46,270 bases of DNA. Origin: Marinitoga sp. 1197 (GTDB lineage: Bacteria; Thermotogota; Thermotogae; Petrotogales; Petrotogaceae). The stretch is taken from assembly GCF_001021165.1 (NCBI RefSeq), contig NZ_AZAY01000024.1, positions 1 through 46,270 on the forward strand, given 5' to 3'. A model generated the notes under the pieces. The model ran no database searches. It saw nothing but the letters and a program-made list of their open reading frames with translations, and was not told where the DNA came from. The translations under genes were made by a program, and so were the position numbers. Below, piece by piece: positions 1,758 through 7,692 of this stretch. Each line of letters opens with the position of its first letter. Position 1 is the first letter of the stretch.

Positions 1758-2098
1758 AATCTCATCCCCATTATTCTAATAATAATTATACTAATCAGAA
1801 TTATTCTAAACAGTATAATTATAATACTATTAATAATGAATGTCAACTATTAATTCAATGAAAATGAATCTTTGTGCAATGACTTTTTATTAGTAAAAAA
1901 GATAAAACAAAAAATTAACTATATTAATATATCAGGTGATATATTAATTGAGTAATTATTATTAATTTTCGAAATATAAAATTAACAGCAAATTTACCAC
2001 GTTTTCGTTTACTTTTTTTTGATAAAATAATAAGTGAATAAATTAATATTTTCTGCTGGTGCCAGTTTTATTAATCAAAAAGTATTTGAGGGATGGTA
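1758..2098. other. 341-bp divergent intergenic region
   Basis: No coding potential recognised. It must hold promoters for the leftward ATPase gene and the rightward secreted-protein gene. A candidate -10 (TATAAT on the minus strand, around 1780-1786) lies close to the ATPase start, but I could not pair it with a good -35. A 26-bp inverted repeat at 1923-1948 is listed separately. The stretch around 2005-2025 (TTTTCGTTTACTTTTTTTGA) loosely resembles the right end of the MITE at 13333, too weakly to call. Confidence 0.5.
1923..1948. promoter_or_regulatory. 26-bp perfect palindrome, candidate operator
   Basis: Arms ATTAATATATCA (1923-1934) and TGATATATTAAT (1937-1948) are exact reverse complements separated by GG. 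Two-fold symmetry with a 2-bp centre suits a dimeric DNA-binding protein better than a terminator, as no T-run follows on either strand. It lies 150 bp upstream of the 2099 gene and 165 bp from the ATPase start. No adjacent regulator gene is seen, so the ligand is unknown. Confidence 0.45.
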
Positions 2099-3857: not shown

Positions 3858-4003
3858 TTGTAAGGGGTGAATACGACAGGTATATTAGTAACATGGCTTT
3901 ATATAATCCCATATTCTCGTGAAAATATATAAAAACAATTTTTCGTAGAATACATTATATGCTATAATAATACTAAGAAAAAACAAATGTGGAGATGATG
4001 AAA

Positions 4004-5548
4004 ATGAAAAAATTACCAATAGGAGTACAAGATTATAAAAAACTAATAATAGAAAATTATATATATATAGATAAAACAAAATATATATTAGAATTAGCAA
4101 ATTCTGGAATACCTACCTTCCTCTCAAGACCAAGAAGATTTGGAAAAAGTTTAACAGTATCAACATTATATTATCTATTTAAAGGAGAAAAAGAATTATT
4201 TAAAGATACATATATATATGACAAATGGGAATTTAAAGAATATCCTGTAATAAAACTCGATATGTCAGATAATACATTAACAACATATGATGAATTTATA
4301 GATTCACTTAATGAAAGAATTGAAGAATTATATAGAGAATATGATATTTCACCAATAAAAAATAATTTACCAACAAAATTTGGATATTTAATAACAGAAT
4401 TAAGTAAAAAATATAAAGAAAAAACAGTAATACTCATAGACGAATATGAATCACCAATATTAGAACATATAAACAATAAAGAAAAAGCAGAAGAATTTAG
4501 AGCATTTTTAAGAGAATTCTATAAAAAAGTAAAAACAAAAGATGAATACATAAAATTTGTATTCATAACGGGCATTACAAAATTCACAAAAACAGGAGTA
4601 TTTTCTGCACTTAATAATTTAAATGATATATCCCTTGATACAGATTATTCGCAAATGTTTGGATATACCCAAAATGAATTAGAATATTATTTTAAAGAAT
4701 ATATAGAACAAACAGCAAAAAAGTTTAATATAACAACAGAAGAATTATTAAAAGAAATGAAAAAATACTATAATGGATTTTCCTTTGATGGAGAACATTA
4801 TGTATATAATCCATTTTCAATATTAAAATTCTTTCAAAAAAAGAAATTTCAAAATTACTGGTTTGAAAGTGGATCACCATCATTTCTATCAAAATATATA
4901 GAAGACAAAAAAATAACCTATGAAGATTTAGTAAAAAACACAGTAAGTAGCGATGATTTTACAACAAGAGAAATAGAAGATGCGAATGCAAATATATTCT
5001 TCACACAGGCTGGATATCTAACATTTAAAGGAAAAGAAATGTATGGGTTTGAAGAAGAATATATATTAGACTATCCAAATCTCGAAGTAAAAGATAGCTT
5101 TTCAAGATTAATATTAGAATCGAATTATAAAGTGGAAATAAAAGAAATAAAAGAAATAAACAAAACAGTATGGAAAAAATTAAAAAACAATGACATAAAA
5201 GGATTAATAGAAGAAATAAAGAAAATAATAAGTGCAATACCGTATAACTTACACAAAAAAGAAGAAAAGTATTATCACTCATTAATATTTACAATAATAG
5301 CATCAGCAGGAATAGATGTAAAAGCAGAAGAATTAACAAACTTAGGACGAAGTGACCTTGTAATAGATTTTGATGAAAGGATATATCTTTTTGAAATAAA
5401 AGTGGATAAAAGCGCAATTGATGCAATAAACCAGATAAAAGAAAAGAAATATTATGAAAAATACAAAGGAAAAGAAATATATATAATAGGGATAAATATA
5501 GATTCAGAAAAAAGGAATATTGATGATTATATAATAGAAAAGATATAA
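4004..5548 (+). CDS. AAA-ATPase-like / PD-(D/E)XK nuclease superfamily protein (DUF1703 type)
   Basis: 514 residues from ATG 4004, chosen because GGAG (3991-3994) is 9 bases upstream and family members begin MKKLPIGVQDY. The N-terminal AAA-ATPase-like domain (PF09820 type) has a P-loop variant RPRRFGKS (about residues 44-51) and Walker B VILIDEYESP (about 140-149). The C-terminus (about 420-514) is the PD-(D/E)XK domain of PF08011, with GRSDLVIDF then YLFEIKVDKS giving Asp and E-x-K. These proteins occur in many copies in Thermotogota, Bacteroidota and Clostridia. Function is unproven; a mobile or defence role is commonly suspected. An extended -10 (TGCTATAAT, 3960-3968) lies just upstream, and a terminator follows at 5570. 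Its A-ending codons are even more extreme than those of its neighbours. Confidence 0.85.
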   Translation: MKKLPIGVQDYKKLIIENYIYIDKTKYILELANSGIPTFLSRPRRFGKSLTVSTLYYLFKGEKELFKDTYIYDKWEFKEYPVIKLDMSDNTLTTYDEFIDSLNERIEELYREYDISPIKNNLPTKFGYLITELSKKYKEKTVILIDEYESPILEHINNKEKAEEFRAFLREFYKKVKTKDEYIKFVFITGITKFTKTGVFSALNNLNDISLDTDYSQMFGYTQNELEYYFKEYIEQTAKKFNITTEELLKEMKKYYNGFSFDGEHYVYNPFSILKFFQKKKFQNYWFESGSPSFLSKYIEDKKITYEDLVKNTVSSDDFTTREIEDANANIFFTQAGYLTFKGKEMYGFEEEYILDYPNLEVKDSFSRLILESNYKVEIKEIKEINKTVWKKLKNNDIKGLIEEIKKIISAIPYNLHKKEEKYYHSLIFTIIASAGIDVKAEELTNLGRSDLVIDFDERIYLFEIKVDKSAIDAINQIKEKKYYEKYKGKEIYIIGINIDSEKRNIDDYIIEKI

Positions 5549-5757: not shown

Positions 5758-6555
5758 TTAATAATGTTCAATATAATGAAAGATTTCTACGAATTTTTCT
5801 ATAGATATATTTTCTGGTCTTGTTTTTGGATCAACATTGCATTTTTTTAATACTATTTCAGTATTAGTATCAAAAATTTTTTTTAAATTATTTTTTATAG
5901 TTTTTCTCCTCTGTGAAAAAGCTATATGTATGAATTTAAAGAATTTGTTTTTATCAATATCAGGTCTGTTCTTTTTAGGAGTTAGTTTGATGACCACAGA
6001 ATCAACTTTTGGATTTGGTATAAAAGCATGTGGAGGAACTGTTAATATTTTTTCAACAGTGCAAAAGAATTGTACAAATATACTTAGAGGACTATAATTT
6101 TTCCCAGATTTTGCAATCATTCTATCAGCATATTCTTTTTGAACCATTAATAAGGCTATCTGGAAATTCGGTGTTTCTAAAAAGATTTTTTCCAGGATTG
6201 GAGAAGTAATATAATATGGAATATTTGCAACATATTTTGGAGAAGATACTTTCGATAAATCTGCTTTTAAGAAATCCATGAATTCTATTTTTATATTATT
6301 AAAACTTTTAAATCGCTCTTCTAATAGTGGTTTTAAACGTTCATCAATTTCAAAAGCTAGTATGGTTGCACCGCTATTAACAAGTTCTTCTGTTAATGTA
6401 CCGGCCCCAGCTCCTATTTCTATAACAGTATCGCCTTTTTTTATTTCTGCTTTTTCTACAATTTTTTTAGCGTATTCCTGTGTTGATAAGAAATTTTGTC
6501 CGAGGCTTTTTTTGAGGTATATGTTATATTTTTTTAGCCAATCACTTGTTTTCAT
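5758..6555 (-). CDS. rsmA: 16S rRNA (adenine-1518/1519-N6) dimethyltransferase RsmA (KsgA)
   Basis: 265 residues, normal for the family. RsmA uses S-adenosylmethionine to dimethylate two adjacent adenines in the 3' terminal helix of 16S rRNA, a late step of 30S assembly. Visible motifs: GQNFL (19-23), the SAM loop IEIGAGAGTLT (45-55), acidic FEIDERL (about 68-74), and the catalytic NIPYY (111-115). The basic C-terminal part includes FSQRRKTIKNNL. The start is backed by GGGAG six bases upstream. The gene is alone on its strand. Its leader region is shared with a divergent consensus promoter (6572-6600), so its own promoter probably lies inside the small RNA gene. It is flanked by 14-bp direct repeats. 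Confidence 0.95.
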   Translation of the reverse strand: MKTSDWLKKYNIYLKKSLGQNFLSTQEYAKKIVEKAEIKKGDTVIEIGAGAGTLTEELVNSGATILAFEIDERLKPLLEERFKSFNNIKIEFMDFLKADLSKVSSPKYVANIPYYITSPILEKIFLETPNFQIALLMVQKEYADRMIAKSGKNYSPLSIFVQFFCTVEKILTVPPHAFIPNPKVDSVVIKLTPKKNRPDIDKNKFFKFIHIAFSQRRKTIKNNLKKIFDTNTEIVLKKCNVDPKTRPENISIEKFVEIFHYIEHY

Positions 6556-6566
6556 AAAAAACTCCC

Positions 6567-6580
6567 TTCACTTGACAAAT
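6567..6580. repeat. 14-bp direct repeat, copy flanking the 5' end of rsmA
   Basis: TTCACTTGACAAAT, the same as 5738-5751. This copy contains the -35 TTGACA of the small RNA promoter and part of the rsmA leader. Confidence 0.6.
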
Positions 6581-6600
6581 TAAAAAAAATGTTGTATAAT
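6572..6600 (+). promoter_or_regulatory. Perfect consensus sigma70 promoter for a candidate small RNA
   Basis: TTGACA (6572-6577), 17-bp spacer, TATAAT (6595-6600). Both hexamers match consensus exactly. It points right, away from rsmA, with no ORF downstream before a terminator at 6690-6713. Confidence 0.8.
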
Positions 6601-6606
6601 ATCGAA

Positions 6607-6713
6607 AAAACAAAATAATAACGATTAAATAGAAATATAAACGAATATCAACCAAAAACAACTTTTTAATTCCCCCTGTTTAACCCTTGGCAGCCAAAAA
6701 GGCTGCTTTTTTT
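6607..6713 (+). ncRNA. Candidate small non-coding RNA of about 107 nt
   Basis: This is the expected transcript from the consensus promoter (start about 7 bases after the -10) to the T-run of the terminator. It has no ATG and no Shine-Dalgarno-led frame. The 5' two thirds is A-rich and looks unstructured (ATAAACGAATATCAACC). The 3' part has a pyrimidine patch TTCCCCCTGTTTAACCC (6670-6686) just before the terminator stem. A C-rich single-stranded stretch could pair with G-rich Shine-Dalgarno sites such as the GGGGG runs seen at several starts here, as in C-rich regulatory RNAs of Gram-positives. That is inference. The RNA is antisense to any rsmA leader starting above 6607, and its terminator overlaps the stop of the convergent permease gene. 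Not recognised as 6S, SRP or tmRNA. Confidence 0.55.
6690..6713 (+). terminator. Intrinsic terminator of the small RNA
   Basis: GCAGCC-AAAAA-GGCTGC followed by seven T (6707-6713). The T-run is only on the plus strand: on the minus strand the stem is preceded by A and followed by CAAGGG. The terminator therefore belongs to a rightward transcript, not to the leftward permease gene. Confidence 0.85.
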
Positions 6714-7692
6714 ATATTTTTTTCAAATAATTTATTATATAAATTTTCCAGATGTTCCTGAATACTATAAGCAAAGGTATTGTAATTAATACACCAACTA
6801 CACCATACATTTGCCCAAAAATTAATAATGAAACTAAAATGAGAAACCAGTTTAAATTGACCTTTCCTCCAGATATCCTTGGGGATAATATCCACATTTC
6901 TAGTTGATTGGCCAGGGTAATAATTATAATCCCTTTTACAATACCCATTAATCCAAAGTTCGTAAAACCAAGGAGTAAAATAGGAATTGCAGTAATGAAT
7001 ATTCCGAGATAAGGGATAAAATCTGTGATTCCTGCTAATAATCCCAGAAATAAAGGGTATGGAAATCCAAATATTAATGATGTAAACCATGTTATAACAC
7101 CAACAAAAAGCGCAGTGATAATTTGTCCGGAAACAAATTTTTTTAAATCTCTAATGGTAATAATTAAAAATCTCTTTGTTTTTTTTATATCGGAATTTGG
7201 GAAAAACTTATCTATAATTTTCCATAAACGTTTATTGGCAATGGCCATGTATGCTGAAGCTACAATTAAAAGCAATCCAACTGTTATAAAATTGGAGATA
7301 TTTGAAGCGAGGTAACTGGCAAATTGTATGATTATATTTTTTAAATATGTTCCTGTAGTATCAAGTAATGTGTTTATTACGTCACCTGTTGTTCCTGGTA
7401 TATTATTAAAGTCTATATCTTTTATAACATCAAAAGCCTTTTTTCCTTCTTCAACGGTTATTGGAATTAAACTATAAAAAGAATACACTATGGCACCGTA
7501 AAAAATGAGTGAAGCCATTGGAACTGTAACTTTTCTTGAAATTTTTAATTTTTCAAGATATGATGCTATTACATCTATTAATATTGTAAAAAACAAAGCT
7601 ACGACAAGACTTCCGACTATTGTCGGAAATAATTTTAACAATATCAGGAAAAATATTAAATAAGCAACTAAAAACCAGAAAGATTTGGGCAT
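6712..7692 (-). CDS. AI-2E family transporter (integral membrane permease)
   Basis: 326 residues with about seven to eight hydrophobic segments: paired N-terminal helices (residues 5-40 and 60-80), then a soluble stretch (about 85-130), then the C-terminal membrane bundle. LLAGITDFIPYLGIFITAIP (about 218-237) is the family's hallmark PYLG loop. The family (PF01594, TqsA/PerM-like) includes proteins proposed to export autoinducer-2, and others such as Na+/H+ exchangers; substrate here is unknown. It is the last gene of the recJ operon, 4 bases after ruvX. The stop codon overlaps the terminator of the convergent small RNA. Confidence 0.88.
   Translation of the reverse strand: MPKSFWFLVAYLIFFLILLKLFPTIVGSLVVALFFTILIDVIASYLEKLKISRKVTVPMASLIFYGAIVYSFYSLIPITVEEGKKAFDVIKDIDFNNIPGTTGDVINTLLDTTGTYLKNIIIQFASYLASNISNFITVGLLLIVASAYMAIANKRLWKIIDKFFPNSDIKKTKRFLIITIRDLKKFVSGQIITALFVGVITWFTSLIFGFPYPLFLGLLAGITDFIPYLGIFITAIPILLLGFTNFGLMGIVKGIIIITLANQLEMWILSPRISGGKVNLNWFLILVSLLIFGQMYGVVGVLITIPLLIVFRNIWKIYIINYLKKI

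What the first reader, a model, noticed from the sequence alone, without database searches (positions are those of the whole stretch)
6572..6713. Unannotated small RNA with a perfect promoter, a C-rich patch and its own terminator beside rsmA
Seen: exact TTGACA-17-TATAAT on the plus strand, then about 107 nt with no start codon, ending in a GC stem plus seven T that is a terminator only on this strand. Just before the terminator is TTCCCCCTGTTTAACCC. Inference: a constitutive regulatory RNA whose C-rich patch may block G-rich Shine-Dalgarno sites, common in this genome. It also runs antisense to the probable rsmA leader, so it may control a ribosome-assembly gene.
Basis: partly seen in the sequence, partly recalled or inferred. 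Interest (0 to 1): 0.65.

Follow-up and report, generated by a model that had tools for sequence, protein, structure and literature searches.

The report
Conserved C-rich small RNA in Marinitoga
Seven Marinitoga species all carry the same unannotated ~107-nt small RNA gene, with its own strong promoter, a nearly unchanging C-rich 'hook' and a terminator, which probably switches off G-rich ribosome-binding sites of other genes, in a bacterial phylum where almost no such regulators are known.

Summary
A perfect TTGACA-17-TATAAT promoter (6572-6600), a roughly 107-nt stretch with no plausible ORF, the patch TTCCCCCTGTTTAAC (6670-6684) and a one-strand terminator (6689-6713) are all present. Comparative evidence makes this a real gene. 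A covariance model finds exactly one copy in each of seven same-genus genomes (one is Marinitoga lauensis), always between the AI-2E permease and rsmA genes. It finds none in 96 other Thermotogota genomes. The -35, -10, terminator 3' arm and T-tail are 100% invariant and the patch is 98% identical, while rsmA fourfold sites are 47% identical. No Rfam family matches. All seven genomes have Hfq. Apart from the terminator the RNA is A-rich and weakly folded.

Best reading: a constitutive, trans-acting, probably Hfq-assisted sRNA that pairs through its C-rich patch with AAACAGGGGG-type Shine-Dalgarno sites. Candidate targets are a 5'-nucleotidase, alanine racemase, a GH57 branching-type enzyme and a sugar-binding protein. 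Target support is only suggestive: there is no genome-wide enrichment over a matched control, but more cross-species conservation of sites (p=0.02, uncorrected). Control of rsmA is not supported: the RNA does not cover its SD. This is a new sRNA family of a known mechanistic kind; expression is unproven.

The parts
6572..6577 (+). -35 element TTGACA
   Evidence: sequence; invariant in 7 of 7 genomes
6595..6600 (+). -10 element TATAAT, 17-nt spacer
   Evidence: invariant in 7 of 7
6607..6713 (+). predicted small RNA, about 107 nt (start inferred 6-7 nt after the -10; A6606 or A6607)
   Evidence: single-copy covariance-model match in each of 7 genus genomes, none in 96 other Thermotogota; no shared ORF
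6607..6665 (+). A-rich, mostly unpaired 5' part (possible Hfq distal-face contact, inferred)
   Evidence: fold; 67% pairwise identity
6668..6684 (+). C-rich patch AATTCCCCCTGTTTAAC, probable seed for pairing with mRNAs
   Evidence: 12 of 13 columns of CCCCCTGTTTAAC invariant; the one variant is a one-C shortening in G003
6689..6713 (+). intrinsic terminator GGCAGCC-AAAAA-GGCTGCT plus seven T
   Evidence: 3' arm GGCTGC and T7 invariant in 7 of 7, loop variable
5758..6555 (-). rsmA (ribosomal RNA adenine dimethylase, PF00398), neighbour on the opposite strand
   Evidence: same position in all 7 genomes
6712..7692 (-). AI-2E family transporter (PF01594), neighbour on the opposite strand; its stop lies in the sRNA T-tract

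Best explanation
A free-standing small regulatory RNA gene of the genus Marinitoga. Shown by sequence comparison: a consensus sigma-70-type promoter drives a ~107-nt RNA ending at an intrinsic terminator, and promoter, C-rich patch and terminator are under strong purifying selection. Inferred: the RNA is made constitutively, is bound by Hfq through its U7 tail and A-rich 5' part, and presents the patch UUCCCCCUGUUUAAC in a mostly unpaired state. The patch pairs (up to 12-13 bp) with mRNAs whose Shine-Dalgarno reads (TT)AAACAGGGGG and blocks ribosome binding. Leading candidate targets are a secreted 5'-nucleotidase/UDP-sugar hydrolase, alanine racemase, a GH57 branching-type enzyme, carbamate kinase and a sugar-binding protein.
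For: Gene reality: model R1 gives one copy in each of 7 genus genomes at E <= 4.5e-13 and none with E < 0.09 in 96 others. Promoter hexamers, terminator 3' arm and T-tail are 100% identical and the patch 97.8%. The A-rich leader is 67% and the linker 64%. rsmA fourfold sites are 47%, and only 20% of rsmA third positions are invariant. The promoter+terminator signature is unique in an 846-kb sample. A similar promoter sequence precedes a tRNA operon in the same genome (L005). Trans pairing: the terminator hairpin is the only consistently predicted structure, and the patch is largely unpaired though its U-rich half pairs weakly in several models. Hfq is present in 7 of 7. Seven orthologous groups carry ACAGGGG at the SD in >= 3 species, against 2 for the composition-matched CAAGGGG (7/24 vs 2/38, p=0.021). 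The 5'-nucleotidase keeps AAACAGGGG in 5 species and AAAGCAGGGGG, still pairable through G-U, in the sixth; its outgroup homologues lack AACAGGGG. Its duplex energy of -19.0 is matched by only 7 of 736 sampled gene starts; alanine racemase (-20.4) and GH57 (-22.4) rank higher. IsrR and RoxS show the same logic (PMC9410917; PMC5419742).
Against: No expression data were available. ACAGGGG-N-ATG is no more frequent than the matched control genome-wide (102 vs 101). The true patch pairs with sampled gene starts no better than flank-shuffled patches that keep CCCCCU. AGGGGG is a common SD in this genus, so some matches are expected. The conservation comparison is post hoc, uncorrected, and species counts are not independent. 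One control SD group is conserved in 6 species. The alanine racemase site is weakened in G001, changed in G002 and lost in G000.
Confidence: 0.66

Rival explanations
1. A cis-antisense RNA, or merely a head-on promoter, that tunes the permease-rsmA operon by transcriptional interference or by pairing with the rsmA leader.
For: The gene order and opposing orientation are conserved in all 7 genomes. No -strand promoter reaching 9 of 12 lies inside the 156-nt gap, so rsmA is probably read through from the permease and the two transcripts are complementary.
Against: The RNA starts about 50 nt from the rsmA start codon and misses its SD. Full complementarity in cis needs no particular sequence, yet the patch is almost frozen while the leader and linker drift. 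In G002 the sequence next to rsmA has diverged while the sRNA has not.
Confidence: 0.14
2. The RNA works as a sponge or protein ligand: the C-rich patch titrates a G-rich regulatory RNA or an RNA-binding protein rather than mRNA Shine-Dalgarno sites.
For: Target-site statistics are weak. The patch is C-rich and single-copy. RNA sponges acting on C-rich sRNAs are reported in Bacillus (PMC8216469, listed).
Against: No partner is known. Several conserved SD sites pair for 10-13 contiguous bases.
Confidence: 0.1
3. The conserved sequence serves the opposite strand, as a leader or intercistronic element of rsmA (hairpin plus GTTAAACAGGGGGAATT), and the + strand promoter is incidental.
For: The same hairpin and patch would be in the permease-rsmA mRNA.
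Against: A perfect promoter and a T7 tail, meaningful only on the + strand, are invariant in all 7 genomes. No start codon consistently follows the G-rich sequence on the - strand (inspection).
Confidence: 0.04
4. A short mRNA coding for a small peptide.
For: Short ATG frames (up to 12 codons, or running off the end in the terminator) occur in some orthologues.
Against: None is shared by the seven, and the window copy has no ATG or GTG.
Confidence: 0.01

Closest known systems
IsrR (Staphylococcus) and other sRNAs with C-rich regions that bind Shine-Dalgarno sites (FsrA)
   Same: AT-rich genome in which G stretches are largely SD sites, single-stranded C-rich region used as a discriminating seed, own terminator (PMC9410917)
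   Different: IsrR has several structured stem-loops and three C-rich regions; this RNA has one patch and no conserved stem besides the terminator; no Rfam-level sequence relation; host has Hfq in all genomes
RsaE/RoxS (Bacillales)
   Same: C-rich regions pairing with G-rich mRNA 5' regions (PMC5419742)
   Different: four C-rich regions in RoxS; no Rfam match here, even below threshold
Rfam sRNA families Ref84, ncr1241, LhrC (sub-threshold matches)
   Same: overlap of the terminator and C-rich 3' end
   Different: all far below gathering score (30.8 vs 52, 26 vs 60, 18.9 vs 110): chance-level matches of terminator-like sequence
Thermotoga maritima putative ncRNAs (12-13, from transcriptome data)
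   Same: unstructured ncRNAs in the same phylum (PMC3636130)
   Different: no match to R1 among 96 Thermotogota genomes outside the genus; direct comparison with that paper's Table S5 was not possible

Membership tests
Trans-encoded, base-pairing sRNA with a C-rich seed (mechanistic class) | own promoter and intrinsic terminator, non-coding | tested here: met
Trans-encoded, base-pairing sRNA with a C-rich seed (mechanistic class) | short unpaired seed conserved above the rest of the RNA | tested here: met
   patch 97.8% vs leader 67% identity; unpaired C run in most folds, U-rich half pairs weakly in some
Trans-encoded, base-pairing sRNA with a C-rich seed (mechanistic class) | targets elsewhere with conserved complementarity at the ribosome-binding site | tested here: inconclusive
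   conservation excess p=0.021; no genome-wide enrichment
Trans-encoded, base-pairing sRNA with a C-rich seed (mechanistic class) | transcript detected; compensatory mutations restore regulation | not testable with these tools
   no expression data or wet laboratory
Hfq-dependent sRNA | Hfq encoded by the host | tested here: met
   PF17209 over cut-off in 7 of 7
Hfq-dependent sRNA | binds Hfq in the cell | not testable with these tools
   U7 tail and A-rich 5' part are compatible only
RsaE/RoxS, LhrC and all other Rfam families | covariance-model score at or above gathering threshold | tested here: not met
   no match in window; best sub-threshold 30.8 vs 52 bits
Cis-antisense regulator of rsmA | covers the target's SD or start region | tested here: not met
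   RNA starts ~6607; rsmA SD 6561-6568, start codon 6553-6555

The most novel reading that the evidence does not exclude
The first widely conserved, Hfq-assisted C-rich trans-acting sRNA of the deep-branching Thermotogota: an RNA with a near anti-SD sequence, made from a strong constitutive promoter, that separates an AAACAGGGGG class of ribosome-binding sites from ordinary AGGAGG sites and so sets a sugar, nucleotide and cell-wall regulon in thermophiles.
Probability: 0.25. Interest if true: 0.65.

Novelty: new member of a known kind. Interest (0 to 1): 0.5.

Why it matters
A recent review lists one sRNA family for the whole Thermotogae phylum against 345 for Proteobacteria (PMC9029176), and T. 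maritima was reported to have a paucity of ncRNAs (PMC3636130). A single-copy, genus-wide sRNA with a nearly invariant 13-nt seed suggests that base-pairing sRNAs operate there too. It gives a short, directly testable handle on RNA regulation in a thermophilic, deep-branching, AT-rich lineage.

Tried and rejected
Rfam at gathering and at E<=10: nothing credible. Homologues outside the genus: model search over the phylum and a laxer one over the family gave nothing beyond chance; rsmA neighbourhoods in other family genera have different neighbours and no such element. Genome-wide target enrichment: AACAGGGG is 191 vs 95 for the reversed pattern, and ACAGGGG-N-ATG far exceeds its reversed control. 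This proved to be ordinary SD usage once the composition-matched CAAGGGG control was run, so I dropped it as evidence. Flank-shuffled patch energies: no difference. Small-peptide reading rejected. The four-C patch of G003 (M. lauensis), together with four-G versions of several of its otherwise conserved target sites, looks like homopolymer shortening in that long-read assembly rather than co-evolution; I do not count it as covariation. G010 match L015 is promoter similarity only. A first alignment mixed strands and was replaced.

Full report
What is there. At 6572-6600 on the + strand lies an exact TTGACA-17-TATAAT. It is the only 12-of-12 promoter in the scanned 5 kb and one of two in the window, against 0.05 expected. 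The predicted RNA starts near A6606-6607. It runs through an A-rich stretch to AATTCCCCCTGTTTAAC (6668-6684) and ends in GGCAGCC-AAAAA-GGCTGCT with a T7 tail (6689-6713). On the other strand the hairpin lacks a T-tract. The RNA has no ATG or GTG, and no frame is shared among orthologues. Both flanking genes are on the - strand: an AI-2E family transporter upstream and rsmA downstream. The transporter's stop codon lies inside the sRNA's T-tract.

Is it a gene? Yes, by comparison. BLAST of the region found full-length matches in all six other genomes of the genus and none comparable elsewhere. The seven-way alignment shows the pattern expected of an sRNA gene. Hexamers, the 3' arm of the terminator and the T-tail are 100% identical and the 13-nt patch 97.8%. 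The leader (67%), linker (64%) and promoter spacer (73%) drift. rsmA fourfold-degenerate sites are only 47% identical pairwise, and 20% of rsmA third positions are invariant across the seven. A covariance model finds one copy per genus genome at E 2.7e-18 to 4.5e-13, and nothing better than 0.096 in 96 further Thermotogota genomes. A laxer search of the family gave nothing better than 0.13 outside the known copies. One named record, Marinitoga lauensis NZ_QHLX01000002.1, fixes the genus. In 846 kb sampled from two genomes, the combination of perfect promoter, no SD-start and strict terminator within 260 nt occurs only at this locus and its orthologue. A similar promoter sequence stands about 50 nt before a tRNA-Lys/Leu/Gly operon (L005), so strong constitutive expression is plausible.

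How it probably works. The only consistently predicted structure is the terminator. The near-invariant unit is the patch, in a region complementary to the probable rsmA mRNA. Perfect complementarity in cis would exist whatever the sequence, so selection on the patch points to partners elsewhere. The complement, GTTAAACAGGGGG, resembles a Shine-Dalgarno site. Hfq is encoded in all seven genomes. I infer a trans-acting repressor that covers AAACAGGGGG-type SD sites.

Target evidence and its limits. ACAGGGG placed 3-12 nt before ATG occurs 102 times in the seven genomes, but the composition-matched CAAGGGG occurs 101 times. AGGGG is simply a common SD here (about 13% of 736 sampled genes). Shuffling the patch flanks while keeping CCCCCU does not reduce predicted pairing with sampled gene starts. 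Counts therefore give no support. Conservation gives some. Seven of 24 orthologous groups with ACAGGGG keep it in three or more species, against 2 of 38 for the control (p=0.021, post hoc). The best case is a probably secreted 5'-nucleotidase (PF02872/PF00149). Its SD region reads AAAACAGGGGGTGT in four species and AAAACAGGGG-TGT in G003. In G000 it reads AAAGCAGGGGGTGT, a change that keeps pairing through G-U. G002 has no clear orthologue. Homologues in genera without the sRNA lack the element. Alanine racemase has TTAAACAGGGGG in four species, a mismatch in G001, and a different site in G000 and G002. GH57 has TTAAACAGGGGGA in two species and a four-G form in G003. These duplexes (-19 to -22 kcal/mol) rank within the top 1% of sampled gene starts and exceed the anti-SD pairing of the same sites. 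A carbamate kinase-like protein, a nucleotidyltransferase, a sugar-binding protein and an exported protein are weaker candidates.

rsmA. The RNA lies 50 nt or more upstream of the rsmA start codon and does not overlap the SD. Interference by colliding polymerases remains possible because no - strand promoter of at least 9 of 12 was found in the gap, but nothing supports a dedicated rsmA control.

Comparison with known systems. Mechanistically the nearest relatives are C-rich-region sRNAs of AT-rich Firmicutes, such as IsrR (PMC9410917) and RoxS/RsaE (PMC5419742). No Rfam family matches. In Thermotogae only one sRNA family is counted in a recent review (PMC9029176), and T. maritima has 12-13 unstructured putative ncRNAs (PMC3636130). 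It works like a C-rich seed sRNA (probable), and it is a member of no described Rfam family (tested). I therefore file it as a new family of a known kind.

Artefact note. G003 (M. lauensis, long-read assembly, 87% complete, with a frameshifted alr) has four C in the patch and four G in several otherwise conserved sites. I treat this as homopolymer error, not as compensatory change.

What is shown and what is inferred. Shown: anatomy, single-copy genus-wide conservation, conservation focused on promoter, patch and terminator, Hfq presence, absence elsewhere. Inferred: expression, Hfq binding, pairing with SD sites and the target list.

Noticed in passing
1818-1846 (- strand): A second perfect TTGACA-17-TATAAT; it precedes, within about 80 nt, an ORF starting ATGAAATTCTATAACAG that encodes a Walker-type GRRRIGKTTL motif (ATPase-like).
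   Followed up: partly
genus-wide, e.g. L142, L118, L148, L176, L201: A recurrent ribosome-binding sequence ACAGGGGGTGN(3-6)ATG before several exported-protein and enzyme genes; AGGGG-type SD sites make up about 13% of sampled gene starts.
   Followed up: partly
3989-5548 (+ strand): A 519-aa ORF whose sequence looks like an AAA-ATPase-like/PD-(D/E)XK nuclease protein, next to rsmA on the far side (from memory, not searched).
   Followed up: no
L266, L287, L307, L313 and orthologues: A membrane-type protein (229+ aa) whose SD context TTTCAAGGGGGT is conserved in 6 of 7 species: SD regions can be conserved in this genus without matching the sRNA patch.
   Followed up: partly
L338 / L353 (G003 alanine racemase): A frameshift splits alr in the M. 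lauensis assembly, in line with homopolymer errors there.
   Followed up: partly
L005 (G000:C32): tRNA-Lys/Leu/Gly operon preceded by a promoter region 83% identical to that of the sRNA.
   Followed up: no
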